Below, in pieces: positions 6,564 to 62,505 of a DNA stretch of 64,000 nt. The stretch covers positions 98,467 to 162,466 of IMG/VR virus record IMGVR_UViG_3300027973_000028, one strand, 5' to 3'. A program made the position numbers and the translations under genes. Source of the stretch: a virus. The number at the start of each line of letters is the position of its first letter. Position 1 is the first letter of the stretch. The notes under the pieces were generated by a model. It was not told the DNA's origin. It was given only the letters and a program-made list of their open reading frames with translations, and searched no databases.

Positions 6564-6643
6564 AATTATCTATCTCCGATAAATGTGTGATATAATTTAT
6601 TAAAAGCAAAGCCCATTATACCACAATTTTTGGAGAGCTAATT

Positions 6644-50137: not shown

Positions 50138-50541
50138 ATTCTTATCTTCCCTTCGCCTTATTAGGCATTGTTGTTATGGATGTTTATTCTTCTTATTATA
50201 TAACAGCTCAATCATAATACACATTTGTATAGATCAAAACAACTCCTGATCAAACTTTTTTTCTGCGGGCCAATTCTTATTCTCAACCTGTATAAACATA
50301 TATAAAATTCCTATAAGCCTAAAAAATAGGTAAAAAATATAAGGGGGTAATAGTGAGTATATGTTGTGCTTCATAAGTTTTAACGAGGCCACCCCTGTAT
50401 ACCCCATCGCTCCTCTGTTTACAAGAGCTAACCGTTGACAATGAGGTTATAAAACACAATGTAAGTCTGACACTACATAGGCGAAGGTGATATGGATGCA
50501 CCTACCAATACATCCCACTACATGTTCCTTAAGGAGGAGAC
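50138..50541. other. Intergenic region at the start of the accessory/early-like arm
   Basis: About 400 bases without a credible gene. It contains an isolated TTGACA at 50435 without a good -10 partner, and an AGGTG/CACCT hairpin near 50484-50502. It ends in a strong AAGGAGG-like ribosome-binding site before 50542. It probably carries the promoter for the right arm, but I cannot place it. Confidence 0.4.
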
Positions 50542-50851: not shown

Positions 50852-50893
50852 GAAGGCTCTTCCATGGTAGTGCATGGGAGAGCTTTCTTTTTT
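50852..50893 (+). terminator. Terminator 1 of the cassette series
   Basis: AGGCTCT-TCCATG pairs with CATGGGA-GAGCTTT, followed by a T-run leading straight into the conserved TATGGCTAG element. Confidence 0.85.
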
Positions 50894-50917
50894 ATGGCTA
50901 GGTATAAGACATCTAGC
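50893..50917 (+). promoter_or_regulatory. Post-terminator element 1 (TATGGCTAG, hairpin GCTAG/CTAGC)
   Basis: The conserved TATG-box directly follows the terminator T-run. The GCTAG/CTAGC arms make a divergent member of the family. Confidence 0.5.
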
Positions 50918-50920
50918 TAT

Positions 50921-50973
50921 GTCTCATCAGATCGACATTAACTGTCTGTGACCCCAGCGTAGGTAGTGGCTGG
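50921..50973 (+). promoter_or_regulatory. Structured leader 1
   Basis: It has a GTC/GAC hairpin, the conserved linker containing TTAACTGTC and GTGACCCC, then a CCAGC/GCTGG hairpin. The layout matches leaders at 56018, 56814 and 57527. An additional ACACGC/GCGTGT hairpin follows near 50994-51020, just before the ribosome-binding site of the ATC-start gene. Confidence 0.55.
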
Positions 50974-51035
50974 ACAACACACTGCTATGGAGACACGCGT
51001 GCCATATATAACAGCGTGTAATAAGGAGGTAGCTT

Positions 51036-51320
51036 ATCGCTGCTATAACACAAGGTAAGACAGTTACATTCAAGCAAGTTGATGATATCATCAATTCTGC
51101 CGCTAAGGAATACCGGGTTTACCACTACAATGGTGGACAGGTCTTCATCCGTTTAAGCGCGTTGGATAATATGATGATGGTTATCGACCATTCAACAGTA
51201 GACATTACAGTTGAGTTGTTTGACGGAACTGCATACTTGGCTGCATATGCCAATAACAACACTGAATACAGCAACCGTTTTATTGCTGCGCCATCACAAT
51301 TGGCTGTGTTGTTTGCTTAA
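51036..51320 (+). CDS. Hypothetical protein with apparent ATC start (94 aa)
   Basis: An open frame from a stop at 51030 to TAA at 51320 has no ATG, GTG or TTG near the ribosome-binding site. AAGGAGG followed by six bases (TAGCTT) reaches ATC at 51036. The product reads I-A-A-I-T-Q-G-K-T-V-T-F-K-Q and Y-R-V-Y-H-Y-N-G-G-Q-V-F-I-R, ending A-P-S-Q-L-A-V-L-F-A, clearly protein-like. The first ATG is about 50 codons in. No family recognised. The 57645 gene shares the same leader layout and ATC start. Confidence 0.6.
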   Translation: MAAITQGKTVTFKQVDDIINSAAKEYRVYHYNGGQVFIRLSALDNMMMVIDHSTVDITVELFDGTAYLAAYANNNTEYSNRFIAAPSQLAVLFA

Positions 51321-51336
51321 GTAAGTAATAAAGAAA

Positions 51337-51373
51337 GATACCCTGGGGTCTTCGGACCCTGGGGTTCTTTTTT
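51337..51373 (+). terminator. Terminator 2 of the cassette series
   Basis: ACCC-TG-GGGTC, TTCG loop, GACCC-TG-GGGT followed by T-run. Confidence 0.9.
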
Positions 51374-51399
51374 TATGACTAGGACAAAGGTCTTATGTC
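51374..51399 (+). promoter_or_regulatory. Post-terminator element 2 (TATGACTAGG hairpin)
   Basis: GACTAGGAC pairs with GTCTTA(T)GTC around an AAAG loop, one bulge. Confidence 0.6.
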
Positions 51400-51424
51400 A
51401 ATACTCTCTAGGAGGGGAGTAGAT

Positions 51425-51694
51425 ATGAATATGAAAGACAAACTAATAATGGCAATAATTGCAGTATTATCAGTGCTTGCAATTGTTAGCTTTGTAGATG
51501 CAAGTAACAACCCAGTATCCTGCCAAGTTGACAGTTTGGTAGCGACATATGGAGATACCTATTGGACATTGAGCAGTGATGCTGGTTGTGTTGGTGGGTA
51601 TGATAAGCAAAGTAGGGTTGGGCAGATAATTGATCTTAATGGAGGTTCTGCGGATCTCCGTCATGGTCAATTGGTAATATTCCCAACTAAGTAA
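51425..51694 (+). CDS. Exported LysM-like protein (89 aa)
   Basis: The ATG at 51425 follows AGGAGGGG; the longer frame from 51395 would run through the conserved hairpin and is rejected. A hydrophobic N-terminus (L-I-M-A-I-I-A-V-L-S-V-L-A-I-V) acts as signal or anchor. The remainder fits a LysM repeat: Y-G-D-T-Y-W-T-L-S-S, then V-G-Q-I-I-D-L-N-G-G and L-R-H-G-Q-L-V-I-F-P. LysM binds peptidoglycan or chitin. A role in cell-wall interaction is inference. Confidence 0.6.
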   Translation: MNMKDKLIMAIIAVLSVLAIVSFVDASNNPVSCQVDSLVATYGDTYWTLSSDAGCVGGYDKQSRVGQIIDLNGGSADLRHGQLVIFPTK

Positions 51695-51721
51695 ATTAAG
51701 TAAGTAAACCCAAAAAGAATT

Positions 51722-51762
51722 CCCCGAGCTGGTACCCTCTGCCAGCTTGGGGTTTTCTTTTT
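51722..51762 (+). terminator. Terminator 3 of the cassette series
   Basis: CCCCGAGCTGG pairs with CCAGCTTGGGG followed by TTTTCTTTTT. Confidence 0.92.
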
Positions 51763-51786
51763 ATGACTAGAGCTCAGGCTTTAGTC
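51762..51786 (+). promoter_or_regulatory. Post-terminator element 3 (GACTAGAGC/GCTTTAGTC)
   Basis: A nine-base stem with one G-U pair and a TCAG loop, one of the best members of the family. Confidence 0.65.
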
Positions 51787-51898
51787 GGGCTATAAGCGTT
51801 ACGCCCTGAAAGTAATGCACCGGTCGTTGGCTACCGTAAAGCTAACACCTGTTGCGCAATTTGGGACTTTCTCTCCCAAAAAAACAGGAGGAATACTA

Positions 51899-52222
51899 AT
51901 GATTACAATGATCATTATCGCAACACTCATGGTTGTGGCTGCAGTTGCAGTTACAGTCTGCGTGATGCAGCAAAAGGCAATCGTTCTGATCAATCAGATC
52001 AAGAACCTCATCGTTCAATTGAGCGAAGAGAAAGCAAAAGCAGCCAAGGTTCTTTCCGAAAAGGAACAAGAACTGAGGGAAGCCAAGGATACAGCACGCC
52101 GTCATTTAAATGATTGGAATGCTCTCTACTTGGAGAAAAGGGCAGCTGAAGCCAAAAAGGCAGAAGCAGCAAAGAAGACAGAAGCGAAAGCTACTGTAAA
52201 GAAGACCAAAACAACCAAATAA
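51899..52222 (+). CDS. Membrane-anchored coiled-coil protein with Lys/Ala-rich tail (107 aa)
   Basis: The ATG at 51899 follows AGGAGG; an upstream frame from 51815 would cross leader hairpins and is rejected. One N-terminal membrane segment (I-I-I-A-T-L-M-V-V-A-A-V-A-V-T-V) is followed by a long helix (L-S-E-E-K-A-K-A-A-K-V) and a Lys/Thr tail. The shape resembles spanin-like or scaffold anchors, but no family is clear. Confidence 0.55.
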   Translation: MITMIIIATLMVVAAVAVTVCVMQQKAIVLINQIKNLIVQLSEEKAKAAKVLSEKEQELREAKDTARRHLNDWNALYLEKRAAEAKKAEAAKKTEAKATVKKTKTTK

Positions 52223-52263
52223 GACAAATTAGGGAAAGTCCTAATTGCGCAACAACAAAAGAT

Positions 52264-52298
52264 GCCCTGGGGGTTAACACCCCTGGGGTTTTCTTTTT
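52264..52298 (+). terminator. Terminator 4 of the cassette series
   Basis: CCCTGGGGGT-TAAC-ACCCCTGGGG followed by TTTTCTTTTT. Confidence 0.88.
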
Positions 52299-52315
52299 AT
52301 ACCTAGAACATAGGT
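52298..52315 (+). promoter_or_regulatory. Post-terminator element 4 (ACCTA/TAGGT)
   Basis: A shorter member: TATACCTAG box, five-base stem and GAACA loop. Confidence 0.5.
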
Positions 52316-52347
52316 CCTTATAATAAGTGAAGGGAGGTGAAATAGAA

Positions 52348-52521
52348 ATGGAAAACGCTAGGAATGGCATATTCCCACATAAGTGTGGATGGCCATCCTG
52401 TGAGTTTGTAGTGGAATTGGACGATGAGCCCAATTGCTTTACTCATTCACCAGACAGCGGCAGTTCCGAGGTCGGCTACTCTGCAAGGAGAGATGCTGAA
52501 CGCGGAATCGTACGGTTCTGA
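52348..52521 (+). CDS. Small zinc-finger-like protein (57 aa)
   Basis: The ATG at 52348 follows AGGGAGGTG; the GTG at 52327 lies inside that site. H-K-C-G-W-P-S-C-E-F and C-F-T-H could bind zinc. The C-terminus is Arg-rich. Function unknown. Confidence 0.6.
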   Translation: MENARNGIFPHKCGWPSCEFVVELDDEPNCFTHSPDSGSSEVGYSARRDAERGIVRF

Positions 52522-52598
52522 TGGGATGGCAGCCAACTGACTAAGAGTCGGGGCAGATGAATAGTGCCTGGCAACAGAAACTATCATGAAAGAATAAT

Positions 52599-52631
52599 CT
52601 CAGGGGTTAGCATCCCTGAGATTTTCTTTTT
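52599..52631 (+). terminator. Terminator 5 of the cassette series
   Basis: CTCAGGG/CCCTGAG with GTTAGCAT loop then TTTTCTTTT. Confidence 0.9.
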
Positions 52632-52656
52632 ATGACTAGGGAAAAGGTCTCTAGTC
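52631..52656 (+). promoter_or_regulatory. Post-terminator element 5 (GACTAGGGA/TCTCTAGTC)
   Basis: A nine-base stem with one wobble and an AAAGG loop. Confidence 0.65.
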
Positions 52657-52750
52657 TGGTTAGCAGACCATAATCTGTTTAGCCGTAGCTGTACATACGG
52701 TGCCAGCGTGATGGGCGCATCCCATCTTTATGATTTCTTAAGGAGGAATC

Positions 52751-53041
52751 ATGTTCGGCATCATATTGCTACAAAACTGGTTGACTTTTGCGATATTCGC
52801 AATTTTGATATCAGTCTCGGTAATGATCATTATCGAGGAAACAAAAGGTAAAGGTATCATTAACACTATCCTATACACTTTAGGATTTGTGTCACTGTTG
52901 TCTTTATGGCCTGTATTTAATATCTATACAGCCATACCTATCACAAACGATAATAATTTATTATTTATAATAGCTTTATTTACAACATATTTTGCTCTGG
53001 TATTTGCTGGAACAGAGTTGATGGATAAAGCTACAAAATAA
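52751..53041 (+). CDS. Small membrane protein (96 aa)
   Basis: TTAAGGAGGAATC precedes the ATG. Three hydrophobic stretches (residues about 8-28, 38-56, 67-88) suggest an integral membrane protein comparable in size to the 50542 product but not obviously homologous. Function unknown. Confidence 0.62.
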   Translation: MFGIILLQNWLTFAIFAILISVSVMIIIEETKGKGIINTILYTLGFVSLLSLWPVFNIYTAIPITNDNNLLFIIALFTTYFALVFAGTELMDKATK

Positions 53042-53098
53042 TAAAAAACTAGAATACTTTAGTTGTACAGAGCTAAAGTTTTCTTACCAAACTAAGAA

Positions 53099-53133
53099 GT
53101 CCTTGGGGTTAGCATCCCAGGGATTTCTTTTTT
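53099..53133 (+). terminator. Terminator 6 of the cassette series
   Basis: TCCTTGGG/CCCAGGGA with GTTAGCAT loop and T-run. Confidence 0.88.
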
Positions 53134-53157
53134 ATGCCTAGTGGATAGGTCACTAGG
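53133..53157 (+). promoter_or_regulatory. Post-terminator element 6 (CCTAGTGG/TCACTAGG)
   Basis: An eight-base stem including one wobble and an ATAGG loop. The stem sequence differs from elements 2 and 5 but is compensated on both arms. Confidence 0.65.
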
Positions 53158-53207
53158 TAGGCAATCTTATTATGCCTACAAATAATAAGAGGAAGGGGAG
53201 CCTCATC

Positions 53208-53393
53208 GTGTCTGACACCTTGAAGCGCTTTCCTACCCTGACCTTACAATGCGCAGACACAATCTGCTTCATTTGTAAGACAGAAACCAAAGTCAATGGG
53301 GATACCAACCCCTATGACCTTGGTTTTGCCAGGGTAGGTGGCAACTCCGCCAACGGGTACGAGATCTATCACATCTCGTGCTGCAACGGCTGA
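53208..53393 (+). CDS. Small Cys-containing protein (61 aa), probable GTG start
   Basis: An in-frame ATG at 53172 has no ribosome-binding site, while GTG at 53208 follows GGGGAG seven bases upstream. The protein has C-F-I-C and a later I-S-C-C-N-G, so it may bind zinc. Function unknown. Confidence 0.58.
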   Translation: MSDTLKRFPTLTLQCADTICFICKTETKVNGDTNPYDLGFARVGGNSANGYEIYHISCCNG

Positions 53394-53458
53394 GTTAGCC
53401 TAATACTGGCCACCTGTGCCTGTCTCATAACTGGGGGACATTAAACTACTCAGTGAGA

Positions 53459-53497
53459 GGGTAGCCCAAAGCATTAGCTAGGGCTACCCTCTTTTTA
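53459..53497 (+). terminator. Terminator 7 of the cassette series
   Basis: GGGTAGCCC/GGGCTACCC nine-base stem with T-run. Confidence 0.92.
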
Positions 53498-53523
53498 TAT
53501 GACTAGGAGAAAGGCTTCTGGTT
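53498..53523 (+). promoter_or_regulatory. Post-terminator element 7 (GACTAGGAG/CTTCTGGTT)
   Basis: A nine-pair stem with wobble pairs and an AAAGG loop. Confidence 0.6.
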
Positions 53524-53551
53524 AAACCAAACATACAACAAAGGAGAAACC

Positions 53552-53821
53552 ATGCGTACATCACCACGCTGTGTTGGTATAGTAAAACCAACAAGTAGGC
53601 GAGTGTTAAAGAAGGGGTTGGAGAGGTATCCTCAGATAAAGGGGGATGTAACTCAACAACGGTGCTTAAAAAGTATCAACTGCCCACACCACAGGGTTGC
53701 TAATGCTAGAATTATGGAGCTTCCATTAGAAGAACCATATGTAGAGCTAACAAGAGAGCAAATAAGGCAATTGATTAACATCGGTTACATGGCTGAAACA
53801 GGCCGTCCATACTACTTATAG
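53552..53821 (+). CDS. Hypothetical basic protein (89 aa)
   Basis: AAAGGAG precedes the ATG. Basic N-terminal half with two Cys and C-P-H-H, helical C-terminal half (L-T-R-E-Q-I-R-Q-L-I). It could bind nucleic acid; no family recognised. Confidence 0.58.
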   Translation: MRTSPRCVGIVKPTSRRVLKKGLERYPQIKGDVTQQRCLKSINCPHHRVANARIMELPLEEPYVELTREQIRQLINIGYMAETGRPYYL

Positions 53822-53845
53822 ACCATAGGTCAAAGGAGAATAACA

Positions 53846-54973
53846 ATGAAATCATTAAAGCGTTTATTAATAATCTCTACTGTTGCAATTTCTTTTATTG
53901 GGGTCAATGAAAGTTCTGCTTCAGCTAGAAATAACAAATGTGTAAAAGTTGGCACATTTAAAACGGCAGTAAAAGTTAAGTACGAATGCAAGAGATTGAC
54001 CACAGGTCTCAGATGGGTAAAGGTACAAACAAAAGTTGTACCAACAACACCTGCTGAAGTTATAATACCAATACCAACTGATTGGTCAAATATTGAAAAG
54101 TATGCACAAAACATACCATACGCAGCATGGAAGGCAAGTGTTGGCGCGATCACCACTGGTATGCCTCAGATGCCAACAGTGAATATCATTAATGGACCAA
54201 ATGCCCTTATAGCTTATTCAACTCCGGAAGTTAAGATTAATTTAACATCACGTTTATTTTCATCTGCAAAGCAACTTTCGCAGGTAAATATTATGCGTTT
54301 TGGGTATGATGATATTGGATGGGCTAATTCAAAGTGGTTAGAGCAATTTAATGGCCAAGATAATTCTGTTCCAAGAGAAATATTCGATACGTGTAAAACT
54401 ACCACGACATGTTGGGGTGGCATTTCGCGCAATACCAAAAGTGGAATAGCTTGGTTTGCTTTGGCAACAATGAAAGATAATCTATCTGAACCTAAACTTG
54501 TAAACGGGACTAACTACGCGCACTCATATGCTCATGCAATCCAATACGCAGCACTGTCTGAAATACCAGCACAAAGACTGCCAAGATGGTTGCTTGAAGG
54601 AGTTGCTACTTATTCACAAGCTGCTGTTGAAGGCATGGTAAGTTTTGATTTATACAAGTCTGAACGCACAAGAGAAACAGGAGGATTAAATAACTCTCTT
54701 GAATGGCTTGAATCATTTCTTGCCCCAACAGGCAATGATTGGTCTCATTGGAACAAATATACTGGTAATGATTCTTGGAGAGTTTATGATGTTGGTTTTA
54801 TGGCAACCGAAGCGTTAGTAGCCCTCAGAGGACCAAACACTGTAATGAGTTTGTATACAAAAGTAGGAAGTGGTCAAACTTTTGATCAAGCGTTTAATGA
54901 GCTATATGGAATCTCTTGGGCTGAAGCTCACAAGATAATTGCTCGTGTAATTTCCTTACAAATTAACAAATAA
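53846..54973 (+). CDS. Exported gluzincin-like protein with altered HExxH (375 aa)
   Basis: A signal peptide (R-L-L-I-I-S-T-V-A-I-S-F-I-G-V) leads to a short N-terminal module N-K-C-V-K-V-G and Y-E-C-K-R...L-R-W-V-K, the Cys/Trp module I associate with exported actinobacterial proteins. The catalytic-like part has Y-A-H-S-Y-A-H-A-I-Q-Y and, about 20 residues on, W-L-L-E-G-V-A-T-Y. In active gluzincins the first motif is H-E-x-x-H; here the Glu is replaced by Ser. The downstream E-G-x-A-x-Y is present. So it resembles a zinc metallopeptidase that may be inactive or altered. Confidence 0.68.
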   Translation: MKSLKRLLIISTVAISFIGVNESSASARNNKCVKVGTFKTAVKVKYECKRLTTGLRWVKVQTKVVPTTPAEVIIPIPTDWSNIEKYAQNIPYAAWKASVGAITTGMPQMPTVNIINGPNALIAYSTPEVKINLTSRLFSSAKQLSQVNIMRFGYDDIGWANSKWLEQFNGQDNSVPREIFDTCKTTTTCWGGISRNTKSGIAWFALATMKDNLSEPKLVNGTNYAHSYAHAIQYAALSEIPAQRLPRWLLEGVATYSQAAVEGMVSFDLYKSERTRETGGLNNSLEWLESFLAPTGNDWSHWNKYTGNDSWRVYDVGFMATEALVALRGPNTVMSLYTKVGSGQTFDQAFNELYGISWAEAHKIIARVISLQINK

Positions 54974-54988
54974 TCTTATTAAAGAATA

Positions 54989-55015
54989 GAGGGTCCTTCG
55001 GGGCCCTTTTTTCTT
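54989..55015 (+). terminator. Terminator 8 of the cassette series
   Basis: AGGGTCC-TTCG-GGGCCCT stem with T-run. Confidence 0.9.
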
Positions 55016-55041
55016 TATGACTAGTGGATAGGCCACTAGTC
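55016..55041 (+). promoter_or_regulatory. Post-terminator element 8, perfect inverted repeat
   Basis: GACTAGTGG and CCACTAGTC form a perfect nine-base stem with an ATAGG loop, preceded by TAT. This is the clearest member of the family. Confidence 0.7.
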
Positions 55042-55061
55042 TTTAGTTAAGGAGAAGAGTA

Positions 55062-55388
55062 ATGAAAGAAATGGAATGGTGTGGATGCATGGATGTGCGT
55101 TCATGGAAAGATGGCTTTGCTGATATTTTTAGCAGAGAGTTAGTAGAAGGTAAAAGAAAAGGTGAGTTGTATGAATTGTTTGAAGTTAAAAGCTTTGAAG
55201 AATTTAAGGATGAGTTAAGTGATATTGCATGGGGTGTAGGACGTATTGTTGGTGGTTTGGTTGGTAAGCCATATGTACGGATTATTGGTGATGCAATACA
55301 TTACAATAAGGTTGTTTCTCGTATGAATGAATATGGTTGTATGAGGAGCAAGCGATTTCTTATTAAGGGTGAATGTCCTAATAAGTGA
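55062..55388 (+). CDS. Possible MazG-like all-alpha NTP pyrophosphohydrolase (108 aa)
   Basis: The helix E-E-F-K-D-E-L-S-D-I-A-W-G-V-G resembles the E-x-x-x-E-x-x-D metal-binding helix of all-alpha nucleoside triphosphate pyrophosphohydrolases. H-Y-N-K-V-V-S-R-M-N-E-Y-G-C-M-R-S-K-R resembles the basic segment seen in phage MazG-like proteins. Such enzymes trim nucleotide pools or alarmones. The assignment is by pattern only. The gene has an in-frame CGG-A read as Arg (position 55276) without a frame break. Confidence 0.5.
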   Translation: MKEMEWCGCMDVRSWKDGFADIFSRELVEGKRKGELYELFEVKSFEEFKDELSDIAWGVGRIVGGLVGKPYVRIIGDAIHYNKVVSRMNEYGCMRSKRFLIKGECPNK

Positions 55389-55416
55389 TTTAAGTTAATT
55401 AGTAAATAATTGACGG

Positions 55417-55458
55417 GGTATGCCCCTAGGGTCGTTTGATCCTAGGGGTATATTTTTT
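55417..55458 (+). terminator. Terminator 9 of the cassette series
   Basis: CCCCTAGG/CCTAGGGG with flanking TA/TA pairing and a T-run. Confidence 0.9.
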
Positions 55459-55482
55459 ATGCCTAGTGGAATGGCCGCAGGT
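55458..55482 (+). promoter_or_regulatory. Post-terminator element 9 (GCCT.GTGG/CCGC.AGGT)
   Basis: The stem has GCC where most copies have GAC, matched by GGT opposite, with an AATGG loop and one bulged A. Confidence 0.6.
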
Positions 55483-55504
55483 TATAGATTATAGGAGAAG
55501 AGAA

Positions 55505-55936
55505 ATGAAAGAGAAAGCAATTATAGTTGATATTGATGGTACTTTGTTTGAAGAGGTGCCAGGTTGGACAATGGAGACTGATGCATGGTGGGTGGAAGAA
55601 ACACTTAAGATGCGTGAGTTGAAAGTTGGAATTGGATTAATTAAAGTATTTAAGGAAATGGGATTTAAGTTGGTTTTCTTGACAGCAAGAGGACAAAGCT
55701 GCAAGAAGAATACTTTGATTAAGTTTAAGGAAGCTGGTATTGATAACTTGGTAGATTCGATGTGGCACAGGCCAGTTAAGTGGAATGGCGTGGCACCAGT
55801 TGAATATAAGAAGTTCATGATGCAACGGATTATGAAAAAGTATGATGTTGTGTTTGCTATGGATGATAGCGACAAGAACTTGGAAATGTTTAAGGGATTG
55901 GGTATCAAGGTATTTGATGCAAAGAGGTGGTGGTGA
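55505..55936 (+). CDS. HAD-superfamily phosphatase, polynucleotide 3'-phosphatase-like (143 aa)
   Basis: The ATG at 55505 follows AGGAGAAG; the frame upstream runs over the terminator element and is rejected. HAD motif I is V-D-I-D-G-T-L, motif II L-T-A-R-G, and motif IV F-A-M-D-D-S-D-K-N-L. The arrangement D-I-D-G-T, T-A-R, D-D resembles phage polynucleotide kinase phosphatase domains or small nucleotide phosphatases. The substrate is unknown. It contains an in-frame CGG-A read as Arg at 55827-55829. Confidence 0.75.
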   Translation: MKEKAIIVDIDGTLFEEVPGWTMETDAWWVEETLKMRELKVGIGLIKVFKEMGFKLVFLTARGQSCKKNTLIKFKEAGIDNLVDSMWHRPVKWNGVAPVEYKKFMMQRIMKKYDVVFAMDDSDKNLEMFKGLGIKVFDAKRWW

Positions 55937-55967
55937 GGTTATTGATAAACCTCAGACCAAAGAAACT

Positions 55968-55992
55968 AGGGTCCTTCGAGGCCCTTTTTTCT
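55968..55992 (+). terminator. Terminator 10 of the cassette series
   Basis: AGGGTCC/GGCCCT-like stem with TTCG loop and T-run. Confidence 0.88.
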
Positions 55993-55993
55993 T

Positions 55994-56019
55994 TATGACT
56001 AGGACACAAGTCTTAAGTC
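55994..56019 (+). promoter_or_regulatory. Post-terminator element 10 (GACTAGGAC/GTCTTA.AGTC)
   Basis: Same fold as element 2, with an ACAA loop and one bulge. Confidence 0.62.
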
Positions 56020-56070
56020 TGTCTATTGGTAGACATAAACTTCATGACCCCACTATTGGTAGTAGGTGGC
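56018..56070 (+). promoter_or_regulatory. Structured leader 2 (TTGG loops)
   Basis: GTCTA-TTGG-TAGAC hairpin, linker with TTCATGACCCC, then ACTA-TTGG-TAGT hairpin. A CACAG/CTGTG hairpin follows near 56088-56102 before the TTG-start gene. Confidence 0.6.
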
Positions 56071-56122
56071 AAATCATACTACCAGGGCACAGCCTTCACT
56101 GTGACTAATAAAGGAGAATAAA

Positions 56123-56803
56123 TTGGAAATGAACGAAGAGCCCAAAGCAATGCCAAAGTGGTTGGGTAAATTCCCAGCCTACATCAAACAATTGTGGTTG
56201 GATTCAAACAAAATTGAACCCACACCACCAGTGGAACCATCACTGCCAGCAGAAGGCGAATTTCGTTTTCTGTTGATTCCACAAAATGACACAAGCAACT
56301 CCGAGGCGGTACCGATGTTGGTGCTCATCCAGAAAGTACTTCAAGATGGGTACTTCCAGGTAATGCTTACTCATTGTGAAGATGCAATGCAAACATACTC
56401 TGATCTTTACGTCACTAGTGGCGAAACAGGTTTGGGGTATGGTGTTTTCATTAGCACCGCAATACAAAATCAAGCTAACGTGAATTGCTTGAGCGAAACT
56501 GCAGTTGGTAAGTTGATTCCTTCAATGGTACGAGCTAGGGGTACATACAATTTTGGACCTAATGATGAGTGGCGCAGAGGACGTCGCTTTTCTTCAGATC
56601 GATTTGTTGCACAACTAGATCCACGTTGGAAGTTCGTTAATGAACAACTTACTGCAATGCAATACCTACTGGGCGCATATGAAGATGAAGGCGATACTCG
56701 TGACTCTGAATTGAGCGCAAAACACCAAGCAGAAGACATGAAATCGTTTTACCAAGTTGACCGTGACAATGGTGAACTTCTTCCATCGCAGAAAAACAAC
56801 TAA
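56123..56803 (+). CDS. Hypothetical protein, TTG start (226 aa)
   Basis: AAAGGAG with six-base spacing points to TTG at 56123 rather than the ATG two codons later. The sequence has a Pro-rich N-terminal third, then a mixed alpha/beta core (F-R-F-L-L-I-P-Q-N-D). No family recognised. Confidence 0.65.
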   Translation: MEMNEEPKAMPKWLGKFPAYIKQLWLDSNKIEPTPPVEPSLPAEGEFRFLLIPQNDTSNSEAVPMLVLIQKVLQDGYFQVMLTHCEDAMQTYSDLYVTSGETGLGYGVFISTAIQNQANVNCLSETAVGKLIPSMVRARGTYNFGPNDEWRRGRRFSSDRFVAQLDPRWKFVNEQLTAMQYLLGAYEDEGDTRDSELSAKHQAEDMKSFYQVDRDNGELLPSQKNN

Positions 56804-56813
56804 GTAAGTAATA

Positions 56814-56869
56814 GGTCTGATTGGATCGACCTTAACTGTCCATGAACCAACCGTTAACCAAGAGGTTGT
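56814..56869 (+). promoter_or_regulatory. Structured leader 3 (no preceding terminator)
   Basis: GGTC-TGATTGGATC-GACC hairpin, conserved linker CTTAACTGTCCATGAACC, then a CAACC/GGTTG hairpin. This leader lacks an adjacent terminator and CTAG element, so the leader is a separable module. Confidence 0.6.
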
Positions 56870-56911
56870 AATTCACATGGTTATTTAATCACAAACAAAA
56901 GGAGAAGGATA

Positions 56912-57430
56912 ATGTCAGATAACAAAAACAAATTCCAGTCAAGGCTGGATGCAATCTCAAAGGTTGCAATTGTTTTACATGCCTTTGGCACATGGTATGA
57001 ACTACAAATTGAATCCAGTGACAAAAATCGGTTGACTGATGGGGCACTGAAGTATACACAGCATGTTAGCTTGTTCCCAAGCAGCAGAACATTGTATTCT
57101 TTTGTTGGTGTTTCAGAAGATGGTGCAATTGTCAATGGTTTCATGCATGATGGAACAAGCAACGACAATGGTGGTTATGGCAGTGATTCGTTTGAATTGA
57201 CGATGAAAGATGGATCACACAAAGTCATAACAGGACCATGGAGCTCAAGACCAGGAGTTCATACTGTTAACAGCGGTATTCAATACACTGAAGTTAGAGT
57301 TGGTTATGGTATGTATGGATTCTCAAGGGAATTCATTGAAGCCATAATTGATCGATTTAACCTCGATGTAAATCTTGACTCAGTAACTTTGGAAGACAAA
57401 GAAATTAATCTGAAAGTAACACCTAAGTAA
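56912..57430 (+). CDS. Hypothetical protein (172 aa)
   Basis: AAAGGAGAAGG precedes the ATG. Mixed alpha/beta sequence with T-W-Y-E-L-Q-I-E-S near residue 30 and F-V-G-V-S-E-D-G around 68; no recognised family. Part of the cassette series. Confidence 0.62.
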   Translation: MSDNKNKFQSRLDAISKVAIVLHAFGTWYELQIESSDKNRLTDGALKYTQHVSLFPSSRTLYSFVGVSEDGAIVNGFMHDGTSNDNGGYGSDSFELTMKDGSHKVITGPWSSRPGVHTVNSGIQYTEVRVGYGMYGFSREFIEAIIDRFNLDVNLDSVTLEDKEINLKVTPK

Positions 57431-57474
57431 GTAGCAGCGGTGAGCCTGGAGTTAGGTTTCAGGCTAAGGAAATT

Positions 57475-57500
57475 AGGGTCCTTCGGGGCCCTTTTTTCTT
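57475..57500 (+). terminator. Terminator 11 of the cassette series
   Basis: AGGGTCC-TTCG-GGGCCCT with T-run; an upstream AGCCTG/CAGGCT hairpin at about 57442-57464 may assist. Confidence 0.9.
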
Positions 57501-57526
57501 TATGACTAGGAATAAGGTTCCAAGTC
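57501..57526 (+). promoter_or_regulatory. Post-terminator element 11 (GACT.GGAA/TTCC.AGTC)
   Basis: The inner stem GGAA/TTCC replaces GGAC/GTCT of other copies with matching change on both arms; TAAGG loop. Confidence 0.65.
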
Positions 57527-57581
57527 CGTCTGATTGGATCGACGTAAAATGTCCATGACCCCTGGTTATTGGTTACCCAGG
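57527..57581 (+). promoter_or_regulatory. Structured leader 4 (TTGG loops)
   Basis: CGTC-(T)-GAT-TGG-ATC-GACG hairpin, linker GTCCATGACCCC, then CCTGG/CCAGG hairpin with TATTGGTTA. An AGAGAG/CTCTCT hairpin follows before the ATC-start gene. Confidence 0.62.
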
Positions 57582-57644
57582 ACAACTACGTAACCAGAGA
57601 GACACTATCTCTCTATAATAAAAAGTGTAATAAGGAGGAATGTT

Positions 57645-58097
57645 ATCAAAGAGCAAATCAACAAAATCAACCAGGTCACTGATGGTGACAAGGTCAAGTG
57701 CGAGCCGTGCTTTGGCACAGGTAAGTACATGAGCAAAACCGTCATCGATGGAACATGTTTCCGTTGCAAAGGCACTGGTTCAGAAAAAGCAATGTCAATC
57801 AAGCAATACAATTTCATCAAGGAATTGTTCATGGCATTGGTGAAAATGAACATCATTGTGAAAGAGAACAATGAATGGCATGAAATGGTTAACACCATGA
57901 ACCAACACAAGGATGGAATTACATTGCGGTCATCCAAGTGGGCATCAGACAAGATTGAGGAATACAAGGCTCGCAAGAACCGTGTCCTCAAACCTAAGAG
58001 GCCAGTGTATTCAGTTGAATTTGAGCAGTGGGATGAACCACAGTGGGTAACTGAAGAATGGAAAGCTGGAGAAGATGCAGAGGCTGACATATACTAG
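57645..58097 (+). CDS. DnaJ-type zinc-finger protein with apparent ATC start (150 aa)
   Basis: The obvious ATG at 57729 would cut off half of a Cys-rich domain. Reading upstream in frame gives K-C-E-P-C-F-G-T-G-K-Y then C-F-R-C-K-G-T-G-S-E, two C-x-x-C-x-G-x-G units as in DnaJ zinc centres. The only codon at proper distance from AAGGAGG is ATC at 57645 (spacing six). The helical C-terminal half ends in an acidic tail. Probable zinc binding; partner unknown. Confidence 0.65.
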   Translation: MKEQINKINQVTDGDKVKCEPCFGTGKYMSKTVIDGTCFRCKGTGSEKAMSIKQYNFIKELFMALVKMNIIVKENNEWHEMVNTMNQHKDGITLRSSKWASDKIEEYKARKNRVLKPKRPVYSVEFEQWDEPQWVTEEWKAGEDAEADIY

Positions 58098-58134
58098 CAC
58101 CGCCAGGTGTATAGGTAGTCATCAAGTCAAAGAA

Positions 58135-58164
58135 GAGGGGGTCCTTCGGGGCCCTCTTTTCTTT
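58135..58164 (+). terminator. Terminator 12 of the cassette series
   Basis: GAGGGGGTCC-TTCG-GGGCCCTC with T-run. Confidence 0.9.
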
Positions 58165-58189
58165 TATGCCTAGGACACAGGTCTCAGGC
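58165..58189 (+). promoter_or_regulatory. Post-terminator element 12 (GCCTAGGAC/GTCTCAGGC)
   Basis: The outer stem GCC/GGC replaces GAC/GTC of most copies, a compensated change; loop ACAG. Confidence 0.65.
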
Positions 58190-58215
58190 TAACACTCTCT
58201 AGGAGGGGAGTAATC

Positions 58216-59667
58216 ATGAAGAATAAACCAACAACAAACAAGGAGGAAACGGTGTATAAAGACACTGTCTACGCAAAACTGAGAAGGGCACTTTACAATG
58301 TCATTCTCGAAGGTAAATTCATGCAAGAAACTCAATGGGACGAGAATGGACGATGCCACATGGTTCAGACATTTGGTGACCGTGGAATTATTGCAACAAT
58401 GCAACGAAAAGCAAATAACAAAGGATGGGTTGTATTCTTTACTTTGTGCATGTACAAGCACGAGCAAAATCACATTCCATTCATGCGTGATTTGAAAGTT
58501 AGATTGACTATCAATGAAACTCCATCTGGAGTAAGATTATTGTGGTTTGTTAATGGTAAGCCACAATGGATGGTAGAAAGTAGTCAAATGGCTTTCTCAA
58601 ATAAATTCCATCATACTGGACATATAGTTCAAGAAGTTATTAATCAGATCAAGAGTATATATTCTCCTGAAGATTTTATACCGATCTTGAAGTACATGCA
58701 AAATCCAACATGCAAAGAGTATACTTTGTATGGCCTTAACCAAAGGTGGATGAAAAAGTTATCAGGTGGAACAAACCCTAGGCAAATCTTGAATAAAATC
58801 TATGGCAAAGATGGGCAGGATGGGTTGAGCAGAAATGCTTTTGGTTCAAATATTGGCAAAAAGAGTTTTGCTACATTTGCTATAGCAGCTGAGCTAGTGC
58901 GATATTTGAAATCATTTCCTACATCATTCTTTGATAAAATCATTCTTGATGACTTTGCAGTACAAGATATTGCATACTTGGGGATGATGTATCAAGATGT
59001 AACTTACATCCAATATTTCATTAAGTACTTTAATCACAGTAAAATCCAACAAGATTTTATTAATGCGATTAATAACTTTGAAATGTATCCACATTCTGAT
59101 TATGACATTTCAGATGCTACAGAACGTTTCTTTAGGATGAGCATTTGGCAGGAAGCACGTGATACCGGCAGGATGTTCAAGGAAATAAAGAACAGAGCTG
59201 TTCGGAGAAACATCATTGCACTTAAAGGCACGGTTCAAGAAACCCATGACCTTGTCACTATCGAGAATGCAAAGCTAGCTCGAGAAGATAAGCAAATCAA
59301 ATACAGTGATAAGAGCCTTATCCTGGATGGTCAACAGATAACAGATAATATTATTTCTGTTCTTCCGAAGACAACGTTTGATTTAATATTATGGGGTTCA
59401 CAACAGCACAACTGCATAGGTAGCTATGGAGATCGTGTTGCTCGTGGCACAGGTGCGATTGTTGTTGGATTCAAAGATGTGACAACAGATACTTGGGTCG
59501 GCCATGCTGAACTCAATAACTATTTCAACAGCTTTGGAAGTTCTTGGACAATCATGCAGTTGAGGGGCAAATATAACTCAAACCTTGATGAGTCAGATGA
59601 AACTACTATTCGTTTGTTTCTGGACAACATACTCAATGCTTGGAATGAAGAGTTAGTATTGCCATAA
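58216..59667 (+). CDS. PcfJ-like protein (483 aa)
   Basis: The last 110 residues carry the PcfJ pattern: S-Q-Q-H-N-C-I-G-S-Y-G-D-R-V-A-R-G, I-V-V-G-F-K-D, W-V-G-H-A-E-L-N and M-Q-L-R-G-K-Y-N-S-N. PcfJ-domain proteins occur on conjugative plasmids and phages without a proven biochemical role. The N-terminal 370 residues are not recognised. It uses the early-arm codon preference, including CGG AGA read normally at 59195. Confidence 0.65.
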   Translation: MKNKPTTNKEETVYKDTVYAKLRRALYNVILEGKFMQETQWDENGRCHMVQTFGDRGIIATMQRKANNKGWVVFFTLCMYKHEQNHIPFMRDLKVRLTINETPSGVRLLWFVNGKPQWMVESSQMAFSNKFHHTGHIVQEVINQIKSIYSPEDFIPILKYMQNPTCKEYTLYGLNQRWMKKLSGGTNPRQILNKIYGKDGQDGLSRNAFGSNIGKKSFATFAIAAELVRYLKSFPTSFFDKIILDDFAVQDIAYLGMMYQDVTYIQYFIKYFNHSKIQQDFINAINNFEMYPHSDYDISDATERFFRMSIWQEARDTGRMFKEIKNRAVRRNIIALKGTVQETHDLVTIENAKLAREDKQIKYSDKSLILDGQQITDNIISVLPKTTFDLILWGSQQHNCIGSYGDRVARGTGAIVVGFKDVTTDTWVGHAELNNYFNSFGSSWTIMQLRGKYNSNLDESDETTIRLFLDNILNAWNEELVLP

Positions 59668-59694
59668 AGTTTTACCTCAGGTAAATAAGAGAGA

Positions 59695-59719
59695 AGGGTC
59701 CTTCGGGACTCTTTTCTTT
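59695..59719 (+). terminator. Terminator 13 of the cassette series
   Basis: AGGGTCC-TTCG-GGACTCT with T-run. Confidence 0.85.
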
Positions 59720-59745
59720 TATGCCTAGTTCACAGGTCTCAGATC
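59720..59745 (+). promoter_or_regulatory. Post-terminator element 13 (TATGCCTAG, weak stem)
   Basis: The TATGCCTAG box and ACAGG are conserved but the stem is poor. This shows the box itself may be the more constant part. Confidence 0.45.
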
Positions 59746-59797
59746 ACTGAGGTCGCTAGGCAAGTAATACAAACCAATAAACCCTTAAGGAGGGAAT

Positions 59798-62389
59798 ATG
59801 GAAGACCAACCGGTCAAACCGCCCGATGCAGCGGCCAATGCATCAACAAAGGAGAAGAAGATGCCAAAAGGTATCATCACTTTCCTGAAGGGGCGCTTTC
59901 GCGTTCTGACAAATAATCCAACTCCGAAAGAGGAGCAGGCATACAATTTGTCTCAGGAAACCAATAAGCCAGTCCCGTTTGGACGGATCAAGACTGTTAC
60001 TGGATACAATTATGTCCAGGACGTCTACGCTGTTCAGACTGGTGACTTCACCTACTCCTTGTTGGAGAACAAACTTACTAAGCGGGGAATTAAGTTCCGT
60101 TTAGGAGTCGTCTCTAACAAGGATCTATCAGAGCTCGTAATCAAACACGAACTGTTCAGTCTTAATGACATGATCAGTAAGTGCAGGTTCGCATGGGCTA
60201 ACGCATCATACACCTTCTTCCTGGAGGTTCAAGACAGTAAAGAAGCATCAAGCTTTGATCTGTCTGATCTTGGGTTGGAGGTCTATGACTTCAAGAAGAC
60301 CAGCAAACGTTTGCAGGAAGTGACTCGTATCACTCAAATGCATTCGTCTGGTCCGATTGGCAAACTTGATTATCGCATGTTGGAAGATCTTCCTGGTGAA
60401 GAACTTGCATATGATGGTCCAGTATTTGTCAGCGACTCATTTGCAGTGCGTTCTTGCTTTAGTATGACTGATGGTCCTGCTAAGAACAAGCACATTGCAA
60501 TGATCAATCGCGGTAAGATCGGTCCAATGATTGGTCGTATTCTGATGGATCAAGGTGAAGTTAAGGGCCTTGTCCACGTTGTTCCACGACAACAGCTAGG
60601 TGCGGATGTGGTTTTCCACAAATCTGCTCTGAAGCGAGAGTTAAAGACTGACGATGGACGTTGGCACTATACTGCCTTCAAACACAAGAACCTCCACACT
60701 GCTATGTGGGATATGCAAACTATGTTCAATAACCATACCTGGTTAATGACCAAAGAGCAATTCACACTGGACATGGAGTCTGTTATCACTGACTTTAACA
60801 AGTCTGTTGAGAATGGACAGCTTCCTGACTGGATTATCCACCAGGAAACTGACGGGCACAAGGATGACTCAGCTCCACAAGTAGAGCATGTGACATCTGG
60901 CTGGAAGAAGAGTTACATCCGCTGGCAACAAGCTGGTTTGGATGTAACTGCATCTAGCAACCTCGTCTACATGGCTTTCGGATCATTGCTGAACCAAATG
61001 CGTTCTGCTTTGAAACGAAACACGTGGTGGGTTCCCATCTCTAATGCCTTTACGGCGACAGTAACCACCTTCGATGCTTTGGAGGTCATGGGTAACTTTG
61101 AGCTGCCTCAGCACAAACGAGACATGGTGTTCTTTGATGAACGCTTTGGCTGTATTGTGCCGACTAAGCGGTTCATTGAGACTGCTGACCTTCATGACAC
61201 GTGGGATCAGGACGGTGACCAAGCTAAGTTCATCCGCATTAAACTGTGGAGTTCTTCGCTTGTTATGAGCCTTGATGGATACAACCATCCGGAACTCAGG
61301 GAAACATATGTCATTCCTGCTGATTTGGTAGTGCCAAGCACTCCTGAAGAGGCAATTGATATGTGTGTCGTTATCCGTTCACCAAACGGTCCTGGCGGTT
61401 ACTCTATCGAACGGTTTGATGCTGAAACGATGCCATGGCTTCGTGTAGCGGAAGATCGTGTACAGGTAATTGATCTGGCCAAAGCACCAGCTGCAATGAG
61501 CACTTTGCTCGTTACAACTGAATGCGGTCAGATTAATAGCTCCACTACCTACAGCAAGGAATTGTTCAACCGGGATCATGCTCTTAATATGATCTTGGCA
61601 CAGATGAATAACCCTGGTGTTGGTAGGTACGCTAATCTCATTATGGTTTGGGCTGCAACATTTGGTCCAAGCTATCCTGATAAGTTGCCTGCAATTGGTA
61701 ACGATGTCATTGACTGTGTTCAACAGACCGCAGACCTTGGTTCATTTGTTCAATTGCAAAGTGACTACTCAGAAATGGCTGAAAGCATTGCTCAGGCGAT
61801 CATTGACAGCGGTTGTGGTATTGACCGTTATGTTCTTGAGACCCGGTTCCCTGCACTCAGCGATGAGACACGCCAAATGCTGGTAGATATTGCAGTAGAC
61901 GGTCAGTTTACTGAGATGTACAACGCATACAATCAAACTATTACAAAGGTGCAAAATATCGCATCCAAGGGTAGCTTTGATCTGCGTTTGACATCTGACA
62001 CTCGTAACAAAGTGTACAATGCAATTCCAGCTATGAGGGAGTCAACCTCTGTTTGGTGCCGTGGCATCTGGTCAAAGTATGAACGTGAACTCTCAAGGGT
62101 TGACGGTAAGTACTCTGAACTGTCCAAGAATACCAATCGCTTTGTAAAGATGTCTGCTGTTGCACAACGCACAGAAGAAATCTCTACCATCATTGGTGCA
62201 CTGTTGGATGAAGTCAAGGCAACATCACATCCTGAGCTCTATGCTCTTGCTATCTACCGTTGGATCATTGATCCGGAACTGACTCGCAGTAAGTATGGCG
62301 TGTCTGACCGTATCATCTTCCAGAACGGAATAGACGGACAAGAGACCATCATGGATCTCATTATCACAGCAATCAAGGACCTGAAGTAA
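59798..62389 (+). CDS. Candidate single-chain RNA polymerase with D-x-D-G-D motif (YonO/QDE-1-like)
   Basis: The 863-residue protein contains D-T-W-D-Q-D-G-D-Q-A-K-F-I at 467-479. The D-Q-D-G-D at 470-474 has the D-x-D-G-D form of the catalytic loop in QDE-1-like and phage YonO-like double-psi beta-barrel polymerases. Then V-V-I-R-S-P-N-G-P-G-G-Y-S (525-536) resembles the R-x-P strand of such barrels, and G-L-V-H-V-V-P-R-Q-Q-L-G-A-D-V-V (257-272) could be part of the first barrel. No T7-type motifs are present. A phage RNA polymerase is the best reading, but a nonpolymerase DPBB protein cannot be excluded. The next gene is a candidate SSB. Confidence 0.55.
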   Translation: MEDQPVKPPDAAANASTKEKKMPKGIITFLKGRFRVLTNNPTPKEEQAYNLSQETNKPVPFGRIKTVTGYNYVQDVYAVQTGDFTYSLLENKLTKRGIKFRLGVVSNKDLSELVIKHELFSLNDMISKCRFAWANASYTFFLEVQDSKEASSFDLSDLGLEVYDFKKTSKRLQEVTRITQMHSSGPIGKLDYRMLEDLPGEELAYDGPVFVSDSFAVRSCFSMTDGPAKNKHIAMINRGKIGPMIGRILMDQGEVKGLVHVVPRQQLGADVVFHKSALKRELKTDDGRWHYTAFKHKNLHTAMWDMQTMFNNHTWLMTKEQFTLDMESVITDFNKSVENGQLPDWIIHQETDGHKDDSAPQVEHVTSGWKKSYIRWQQAGLDVTASSNLVYMAFGSLLNQMRSALKRNTWWVPISNAFTATVTTFDALEVMGNFELPQHKRDMVFFDERFGCIVPTKRFIETADLHDTWDQDGDQAKFIRIKLWSSSLVMSLDGYNHPELRETYVIPADLVVPSTPEEAIDMCVVIRSPNGPGGYSIERFDAETMPWLRVAEDRVQVIDLAKAPAAMSTLLVTTECGQINSSTTYSKELFNRDHALNMILAQMNNPGVGRYANLIMVWAATFGPSYPDKLPAIGNDVIDCVQQTADLGSFVQLQSDYSEMAESIAQAIIDSGCGIDRYVLETRFPALSDETRQMLVDIAVDGQFTEMYNAYNQTITKVQNIASKGSFDLRLTSDTRNKVYNAIPAMRESTSVWCRGIWSKYERELSRVDGKYSELSKNTNRFVKMSAVAQRTEEISTIIGALLDEVKATSHPELYALAIYRWIIDPELTRSKYGVSDRIIFQNGIDGQETIMDLIITAIKDLK

Positions 62390-62412
62390 TAGGTTCTTCC
62401 GAGTAAAGAGAG

Positions 62413-62445
62413 AGAGCCCCTGGGGAAACCTAGGGGTTCTTTCTT
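62413..62445 (+). terminator. Terminator 14 of the cassette series
   Basis: AGCCCCTGGGG/CCTAGGGGTTCT-type stem with T-run after the candidate RNA polymerase gene. Confidence 0.88.
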
Positions 62446-62462
62446 TATTCCTAGATCCTAGG
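62446..62462 (+). promoter_or_regulatory. Post-terminator element 14 (CCTAG-ATC-CTAGG)
   Basis: A five-base perfect stem with an ATC loop directly after the terminator. A second copy, CCTAG-ATC-TTAGG, follows a T-run at 62493-62505. Confidence 0.6.
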
Positions 62463-62492
62463 TCTTTAGTTATTATATTAATATTTTTTTTT

Positions 62493-62505
62493 CCTAGATC
62501 TTAGG
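62493..62505 (+). promoter_or_regulatory. Second copy of the CCTAG-ATC-TTAGG element
   Basis: It follows a long T-run without its own terminator stem, so it is a partial duplication of the preceding site. Confidence 0.45.

What the first reader, a model, noticed from the sequence alone, without database searches (positions are those of the whole stretch)
50893..62505. A conserved TATG(A/C)CTAG hairpin follows almost every terminator in the right arm
Fourteen sites plus one partial copy share a T-run, then TAT(G/N)(A/C)CTAG, a loop of form NNAGG or similar, and a second arm. Stems covary: GACTAGTGG/CCACTAGTC at 55019, GACTAGAGC/GCTTTAGTC at 51765, GCCTAGGAC/GTCTCAGGC at 58168, GGAA/TTCC inner stem at 57504. 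I see none in the late block. It could be a promoter for a phage RNA polymerase, an RNA processing site that makes defined 5' ends, or a binding site for a regulator. A host sigma-70 promoter is unlikely as no -35 partner recurs.
Basis: partly seen in the sequence, partly recalled or inferred. Interest (0 to 1): 0.88.

Follow-up and report, generated by a model that had tools for sequence, protein, structure and literature searches.

The report
Phage start signals behind gene stops
In a group of large uncultured phages almost every early gene ends in a stop signal for transcription that is followed at once by the same short hairpin-forming sequence, which most likely restarts transcription for the next gene and may be read by an unusual polymerase that the phage itself encodes.

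Summary
All 14 full sites are present, on the + strand only. They lie behind 13 of 13 scanned array terminators and behind none of 18 other stem-plus-T candidates in the 162-kb record. A site-level profile from seven phage lineages (55 sites) shows a motif without indels: T-run, TATG, 2 nt, TAG, 6 nt, G(G/A)YY. The flanking arms vary but pair: arm swapping destroys the pairing (0 of 20,000 swaps as good). Some leaders fold as a short hairpin, others as a longer one, while the TATG/TAG/GG spacing stays fixed. This argues that the sequence is read as DNA and the helix is the 5' end of the RNA. No sigma-70 partner exists. A near-identical phage pair differs by one gene-terminator-motif cassette placed before an operon, so the motif should restore expression. 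The 59798 protein models as a single-chain two-barrel RNA polymerase (nearest folds RDR2/QDE-1; DxDGD triad). Best reading: a phage promoter with a built-in 5' RNA hairpin, possibly read by that polymerase. The polymerase link is inference: some relatives keep the enzyme and lack the motif. Phages 0305phi8-36 and P23-45 are close precedents, so this is a new variant, not a new kind.

The parts
50852..50887 (+). intrinsic terminator upstream of site 1
50893..50918 (+). motif site 1 (TATGGCTAG..), short hairpin
51340..51365 (+). terminator 2
51374..51399 (+). motif site 2 (TATGACTAG..), short hairpin with one bulge
51722..51752 (+). terminator 3
51762..51787 (+). motif site 3, 9-bp stem GACTAGAGC/GCTTTAGTC
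52264..52289 (+). terminator 4
52298..52323 (+). motif site 4 (TATACCTAG..), weak stem
52596..52623 (+). terminator 5
52631..52656 (+). motif site 5, 9-bp stem
53095..53128 (+). terminator 6
53133..53158 (+). motif site 6 (TATGCCTAG..), 9-bp stem
53457..53491 (+). terminator 7 (read from sequence; missed by the scan)
53498..53523 (+). motif site 7, 9-bp stem with G-U pairs
54988..55009 (+). terminator 8
55016..55041 (+). motif site 8, perfect 9-bp stem GACTAGTGG/CCACTAGTC; SD follows at +34
55419..55452 (+). terminator 9
55458..55483 (+). motif site 9
55968..55985 (+). terminator 10
55994..56019 (+). motif site 10
57475..57492 (+). terminator 11
57501..57526 (+). motif site 11
58134..58159 (+). 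terminator 12
58165..58190 (+). motif site 12 (GCCTAGGAC/GTCTCAGGC)
59693..59714 (+). terminator 13
59720..59761 (+). motif site 13, upstream of the polymerase gene; long form: outer stem GCCTAG/CTAGGC plus inner hairpin starting at the conserved GG
59798..62389 (+). 863-aa protein, predicted single-chain two-barrel (RDR/QDE-1-like) RNA polymerase with D470xD472GD474
62412..62441 (+). terminator 14
62446..62471 (+). motif site 14 (TATTCCTAG..), weak stem
62486..62505 (+). partial copy (T-run, CCTAG), no terminator stem
50181..50541 (+). conserved upstream control region at the start of the array, shared with relatives that lack the motif

Best explanation
Each copy is a phage-specific promoter fused to the 3' side of the terminator of the gene before it. 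The terminator's T-run is also the upstream part of the promoter; TATG, TAG and GG at fixed spacing are the bases the polymerase reads. The transcript starts at or near the G of TATG (inferred), so its 5' end is locked in a helix that is kept by compensatory changes, either as a short 9-bp hairpin or as a longer two-part hairpin, just upstream of the Shine-Dalgarno sequence. The array is therefore a row of insulated one-gene units (gene, terminator, promoter) that can be gained or lost as cassettes without shutting off the genes behind them. Shown: the motif, its fixed spacing, the covariation, the tie to terminators, the cassette swap, the polymerase-like fold. Inferred: promoter activity, the start point, and which polymerase.
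For: Site-level profile of 55 sites from 7 phages: T-run, T1 A2 T3 G4 T7 A8 G9 G16 G17 C21 with no indels, near-zero information at +10..+12. The same fixed bases occur whether the leader folds short or long (GG in a loop or in a stem), and the helix starts at +4 in most sites: the bases are read as sequence, the helix is a separate constraint. Covariation: arm swap -7.28 vs -3.95 over all sites, -5.08 within phages, 0 of 20,000; 87% of cells paired, 24 two-sided changes vs 8.5 in shuffles, 5 of 9 pairs with two-sided change, slid registers 31-51% paired. SD begins at +34 or later in nearly all sites and there is no room for another promoter in the shortest leaders. No sigma-70 enrichment (31 vs 31.4 expected; site-centred score 6.4 vs 6.7 in controls). 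L013 and L021 are 98-99% identical on both sides of a swapped segment; L013 has gene + terminator + motif, L021 a gene with neither, ahead of the same operon. Relatives L015 and L016 have the block as one operon with neither internal terminators nor motif, so the two come and go together. Strict motif hits in IMG/VR fall only in records that also encode the polymerase, apart from isolated chance hits. Polymerase: D-x-D-x-D aspartates invariant in 13 homologues, AF2 pLDDT 77, and the nine best PDB folds are all RDR2 or QDE-1; it is the only D.DGD ORF of 250 aa or more in the genome.
Against: No transcript data. Records G004-G006, G008 and G010 keep the polymerase gene and show no hit to the motif pattern, and G003 (L013) has only one AATG variant, so the enzyme needs no such site there. 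The non-array genes show a different promoter-like word, TTACTAT(A/T), 13 vs 0.78 expected, which the enzyme might read instead. The phage also encodes a weak sigma region-4 match. TM-scores to RDR2/QDE-1 are low (about 0.3), Pfam RdRP does not detect the family, and the most distant homologue (L038) has lost the G of DxDGD.
Confidence: 0.6

Rival explanations
1. RNA processing or stability element: transcripts run through leaky terminators and a nuclease cuts in the T-run or TATG, leaving a 3' end capped by the terminator hairpin and a 5' end capped by the conserved hairpin.
For: Covarying helix of two architectures right behind each terminator; transcripts could come from the conserved upstream region that all members share.
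Against: The long T-runs and strong stems look like real intrinsic terminators (28 found vs 9.4 expected), which would starve distal genes; GG at +16/+17 is conserved in both loop and stem contexts, odd for an RNA-recognition site; relatives without terminators also lack the element though their polycistronic mRNA would need processing just as much.
Confidence: 0.15
2. Promoter read as a DNA hairpin (N4 vRNAP style): the arms pair in one extruded DNA strand, and transcription starts downstream of the hairpin.
For: Conserved plus freely covarying stem bases is the signature described for N4 promoters (PMC4496689).
Against: Stem length and loop position are not fixed: loops of 3-7 nt and a second, longer architecture, and some sites hardly pair; T opposite the invariant G and G opposite the invariant T are common while C opposite the invariant A is absent, which a template-strand hairpin would see as mismatches; no N4-type polymerase was identified.
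Confidence: 0.08
3. Antitermination or regulator-binding site: an RNA hairpin bound by a phage factor, or a cis-acting RNA as in HK022 put, that lets polymerase from the upstream promoter pass the terminators.
For: Strict coupling of terminator and element; shared upstream control region.
Against: The element lies behind each terminator, so as RNA it cannot help with the one before it, and one copy at the array start would serve; the T-run and TAT upstream of the helix are among the best conserved bases; L013 has its single copy after its only array terminator, with none left to overcome.
Confidence: 0.1
4. Promoter, but read by host RNA polymerase redirected by a phage sigma-like factor and not by the 863-aa polymerase.
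For: Weak sigma region-4 match at G000:16646-17206 (E 7e-5); phages that keep the polymerase but lack the motif.
Against: No -35/-10 pair; sigma matches are weak or absent in most relatives that carry the motif; motif-bearing records all encode the polymerase.
Confidence: 0.25

Closest known systems
Bacillus thuringiensis phage 0305phi8-36: RDR-like RNA polymerase orf99, 14 copies of a 21-bp phage-specific promoter candidate and a monocistronic host-takeover region (Hardies et al. 2007, PMC2147016)
   Same: Large tailed phage, RDR-family polymerase gene, right arm of small one-gene units, repeated phage-specific promoter candidate in noncoding gaps, same kind of inference
   Different: No hairpin or terminator coupling is described for the 21-bp motif; the logo is a figure and the genome was not in the collection, so the sequences could not be compared; no sequence homology of the polymerases was shown here
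Thermus phage P23-45 gp96 (virion) and gp64 (non-virion) two-barrel RNA polymerases with AT-rich and GC-rich promoter motifs (PMC10770324)
   Same: Single-chain two-barrel polymerases with DxDxD; conserved motifs tied by TSS mapping and ChIP-seq to early genes; relatives lacking one polymerase lack its motif
   Different: Motifs are not reported as hairpins or as fused to intrinsic terminators; here some relatives keep the polymerase and lack the motif
SPbeta YonO (PMC5467207)
   Same: About 100-kDa single-chain two-barrel DNA-dependent RNA polymerase of a phage
   Different: Its promoter sequence was left undetermined; it transcribes late genes
Phage N4 vRNAP hairpin promoters (PMC4496689)
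   Same: Inverted repeat with conserved and freely covarying stem bases ahead of early genes
   Different: Fixed small DNA hairpin upstream of the start, T7-like polymerase; here geometry varies and the helix most likely lies in the RNA
SPO1 host-takeover module (terminal redundancy)
   Same: Row of small early genes, each apparently its own transcript (as cited in PMC2147016)
   Different: Read by host sigma-A polymerase (own knowledge); promoters not built as terminator-motif-hairpin units

Membership tests
single-chain two-barrel RNA polymerase (RDR/QDE-1/YonO type) | DxDGD catalytic aspartate triad | tested here: met
   HDTWDQDGD; the three aspartates invariant in 13 aligned homologues, with a one-residue gap at G in L038
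single-chain two-barrel RNA polymerase (RDR/QDE-1/YonO type) | two-barrel RDR-like fold | tested here: met
   AF2 pLDDT 77.1, pTM 0.73; nine best PDB hits all RDR2/QDE-1, E 1.3e-5 to 2.4e-2; TM-scores low (0.2-0.34)
single-chain two-barrel RNA polymerase (RDR/QDE-1/YonO type) | sequence match to Pfam RdRP PF05183 | tested here: not met
   no match at E<=10 or in hmmscan
single-chain two-barrel RNA polymerase (RDR/QDE-1/YonO type) | RNA synthesis on DNA | not testable with these tools
   needs biochemistry
phage-specific promoter | fixed-spacing conserved bases at repeated sites ahead of genes | tested here: met
   55 sites, no indels over +1..+21
phage-specific promoter | transcript 5' ends at the sites | not testable with these tools
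   no RNA data for these phages
host sigma-70 promoter | -35 and -10 hexamers at proper spacing | tested here: not met
   31 vs 31.4 expected; site-centred score not above control
N4-type DNA hairpin promoter | hairpin of fixed size with conserved and variable stem bases | tested here: not met
   covarying stem present but stem and loop geometry varies between two architectures
0305phi8-36 21-bp promoter class | sequence of the 21-bp logo | not testable with these tools
   record not in the collection; figure not held as text
known RNA family (Rfam 15) | match at gathering score | tested here: not met
   no match in the window

The most novel reading that the evidence does not exclude
An RDR/QDE-1-type RNA polymerase of a DNA phage reads a promoter that is physically fused to the preceding terminator and doubles as a self-complementary 5' leader, so that gene-terminator-promoter cassettes can be slotted into an operon without polar effects. 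It would be a new promoter class for the least understood polymerase clade and a design rule for phage gene acquisition.
Probability: 0.35. Interest if true: 0.82.

Novelty: new variant of a known kind. Interest (0 to 1): 0.62.

Why it matters
For the RDR/QDE-1-like phage polymerases the promoter is either unknown (YonO) or only proposed (0305phi8-36). Here is a polymerase candidate together with about 55 candidate promoter sites from seven lineages, with base-level conservation and natural losses and gains to test against. The cassette swap between two near-identical phages shows how a phage can add a terminated gene to an operon and keep the rest of the operon on. The sequences are short enough to test directly in a cell-free system.

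Tried and rejected
Exact 9-mer enrichment over the window is not significant and misleads; the longer fixed-spacing pattern is needed. Sigma-70 promoters: no enrichment. Rfam: nothing. Nearby annotated phages: no DNA or protein match to the polymerase; TerL relatives Moorella MTATph1 and Bacillus KLEB27-3 show no PF05183 match, and the end regions fetched show no D.DGD frame and no array of the motif. Bacterial genome scan for the polymerase: no relative, so no host. G.U against A.C asymmetry as a test of RNA versus DNA pairing is not significant against column shuffles (0.76 vs 0.72, P 0.08) and only suggestive at invariant positions. Four IMG/VR contigs with single motif hits (L039, L040, L043, L045) look like chance matches in AT-rich DNA without terminators.
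Full report
What the window is. The window is the right end (98467-162466) of a 162,466-bp uncultured virus record. Nearly all genes from 3 to 143 kb lie on the minus strand; the right arm carries small plus-strand genes. RecA/UvsX-like and terminase genes mark it as a tailed phage; its terminase is nearest to Moorella phage MTATph1, 37.6%. No annotated phage DNA matches the right arm.

Fourteen sites and one partial copy lie at the stated places. The short word alone is not rarer than chance, but the fixed pattern TTTATGNNTAGNNNNNNGR is found 10 times on one strand of the array and nowhere else in the record, control 0. The terminator scan found 13 array terminators, all with the motif, and 18 other stem-plus-T candidates, none with it.

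It is conserved in relatives. With the 863-aa protein as a marker, 17 IMG/VR records were found, one of them the same phage. The motif is present in L009 (same phage), L011/L012/L022 (polymerase 43% identical), L019/L020 (37%), L010 (42%), L037 (41%) and L038 (27%). In L010 and L037 the 5' arm reads GGGTAG where the window has GACTAG, and the 3' arm has changed with it. Strict pattern scans of IMG/VR hit only such records, plus four isolated chance hits.

Anatomy. Counting the first T of TATG as +1, 55 sites share a T-run, TATG, TAG (+7..+9), GG or GA (+16,+17), YY and C21, without indels. Positions +10..+12 carry almost no information but pair with +18..+20. Swapping arms between sites costs 3.3 kcal/mol on average over all sites and 2.2 within phages, 0 of 20,000 swaps as good. 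On 23 sites of one register, 87% of cells are paired, 24 cells have two-sided changes (shuffles 8.5), and slid registers fall to 31-51%. Sites that fail as short hairpins often fold in a second way: outer stem from +4, a 5-nt bulge, an inner hairpin that starts at the GG; examples are window 59720, L022 1901, 2945, 3941, 9977 and L037 8115. For these weak sites own downstream sequence folds better than swapped sequence in energy (P 0.009), although the pairing of +4..+9 alone is not higher than in swaps (P 0.90). Because TATG, TAG and GG keep their spacing in both folds, I read them as DNA-recognised bases and the helix as an RNA feature. The SD sequence starts at +34 or later in nearly all sites; L019 2093 is an exception with no hairpin and SD at +25.

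Coupling to terminators, and a natural experiment. In L015 and L016 the same gene block is one operon without internal terminators and without the motif. L013 and L021 are 98-99% identical on both sides of one swapped segment: L013 about 6600-6875 holds a gene, a terminator and a motif copy; L021 has another gene with neither; the following operon, including the polymerase gene, is the same. A terminator placed there would silence the operon unless the motif restarts transcription or cancels the stop. This is the strongest argument for promoter function short of RNA data.

The polymerase. The 863-aa protein has no Pfam or PHROGs match of note. Its family has HDTWDQDGD. The first AF2 model (7 sequences) hit QDE-1 alone (E 2e-4); the better model (13 sequences, pLDDT 77) hit RDR2 and QDE-1 in its nine best places. 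It is the only ORF of 250 aa or more with D.DGD in the genome. I take it as a single-chain two-barrel RNA polymerase with good but not full confidence: TM-scores are about 0.3 and no activity is known.

Who reads the motif. Association is strong in one direction only: records with the motif encode the polymerase, but L014, L015, L016, L021 and L023 keep the polymerase without the motif in the sequence held. The tree puts these in one clade with L013 (one copy) and L019 (seven copies), so losses, gains or both are possible. The minus-strand genes have their own promoter-like word TTACTAT(A/T), 16.6-fold enriched in gaps, and a weak sigma region-4 match exists. So the polymerase could read this motif, the other one or both; I put 0.35-0.4 on this motif.

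Against what is known. Hardies et al. (PMC2147016) described in phage 0305phi8-36 an RDR-like polymerase, 14 copies of a 21-bp phage-specific promoter candidate and a monocistronic host-takeover region. P23-45 (PMC10770324) has two two-barrel polymerases with motifs mapped by TSS sequencing and ChIP-seq. YonO's promoter was left open (PMC5467207). N4 promoters are hairpins with conserved and free stem bases (PMC4496689). The present element works like the first two and adds the fusion to a terminator, the covarying 5' helix and the cassette behaviour: a new variant of a known kind.

Noticed in passing
record G000 minus strand, e.g. 7296, 14361, 24786, 37708, 90018, 94105, 108259, 121253, 125024: A second promoter-like word, (G/A)TTACTAT(A/T), is 16.6-fold enriched in gaps between minus-strand genes (13 seen, 0.78 expected); relatives have copies ahead of AGGAG.
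   Followed up: partly
window 50935-51030, 56030-56120, 56815-56905, 57530-57630; L013 6880, 7483; L019 about 640-740: Longer leaders carry a second repeated RNA-like element: a hairpin with an AUUGG loop, a spacer ending in CATGA, and an apparent H-type pseudoknot. The 57530 and L019 copies show a compensatory change, TTGGTTAC/GTAACCAG versus TTGATTAC/GTAATCAG. It is also present in phages that lack the terminator motif.
   Followed up: partly
window 53155-53200: Leader with a strong possible pseudoknot (GTAGGC/GCCTAC with TCTTATTAT/ATAATAAGA) close to the start of the next gene; none of 40 shuffles as good.
   Followed up: no
window 50181-50541; L013 6400-6617; L015 4880-5090; L038 about 6680-6920: A conserved region of about 200 bp (GGGCCAGTA.TAGTGGGTATAT ... 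TTTAACGAGCCCACCCGGGTATGGGG) opens the array in the members checked, with or without the motif; it is likely the main early control region.
   Followed up: no
L022 about 8880-8950 and 6080-6122: Some sites follow AT-rich hairpins made of the motif's own letters (CTAGTAA..TTACTAG plus T-run) instead of GC-rich terminators, as if a motif copy had turned into a terminator.
   Followed up: no
G000:C1:16646-17206 minus strand: 186-aa protein with a weak sigma-70 region 4 match (E 7e-5, below cut-off).
   Followed up: partly
window 58216-59667: 483-aa PcfJ-like protein (Pfam E 2e-11) encoded just before the polymerase.
   Followed up: no
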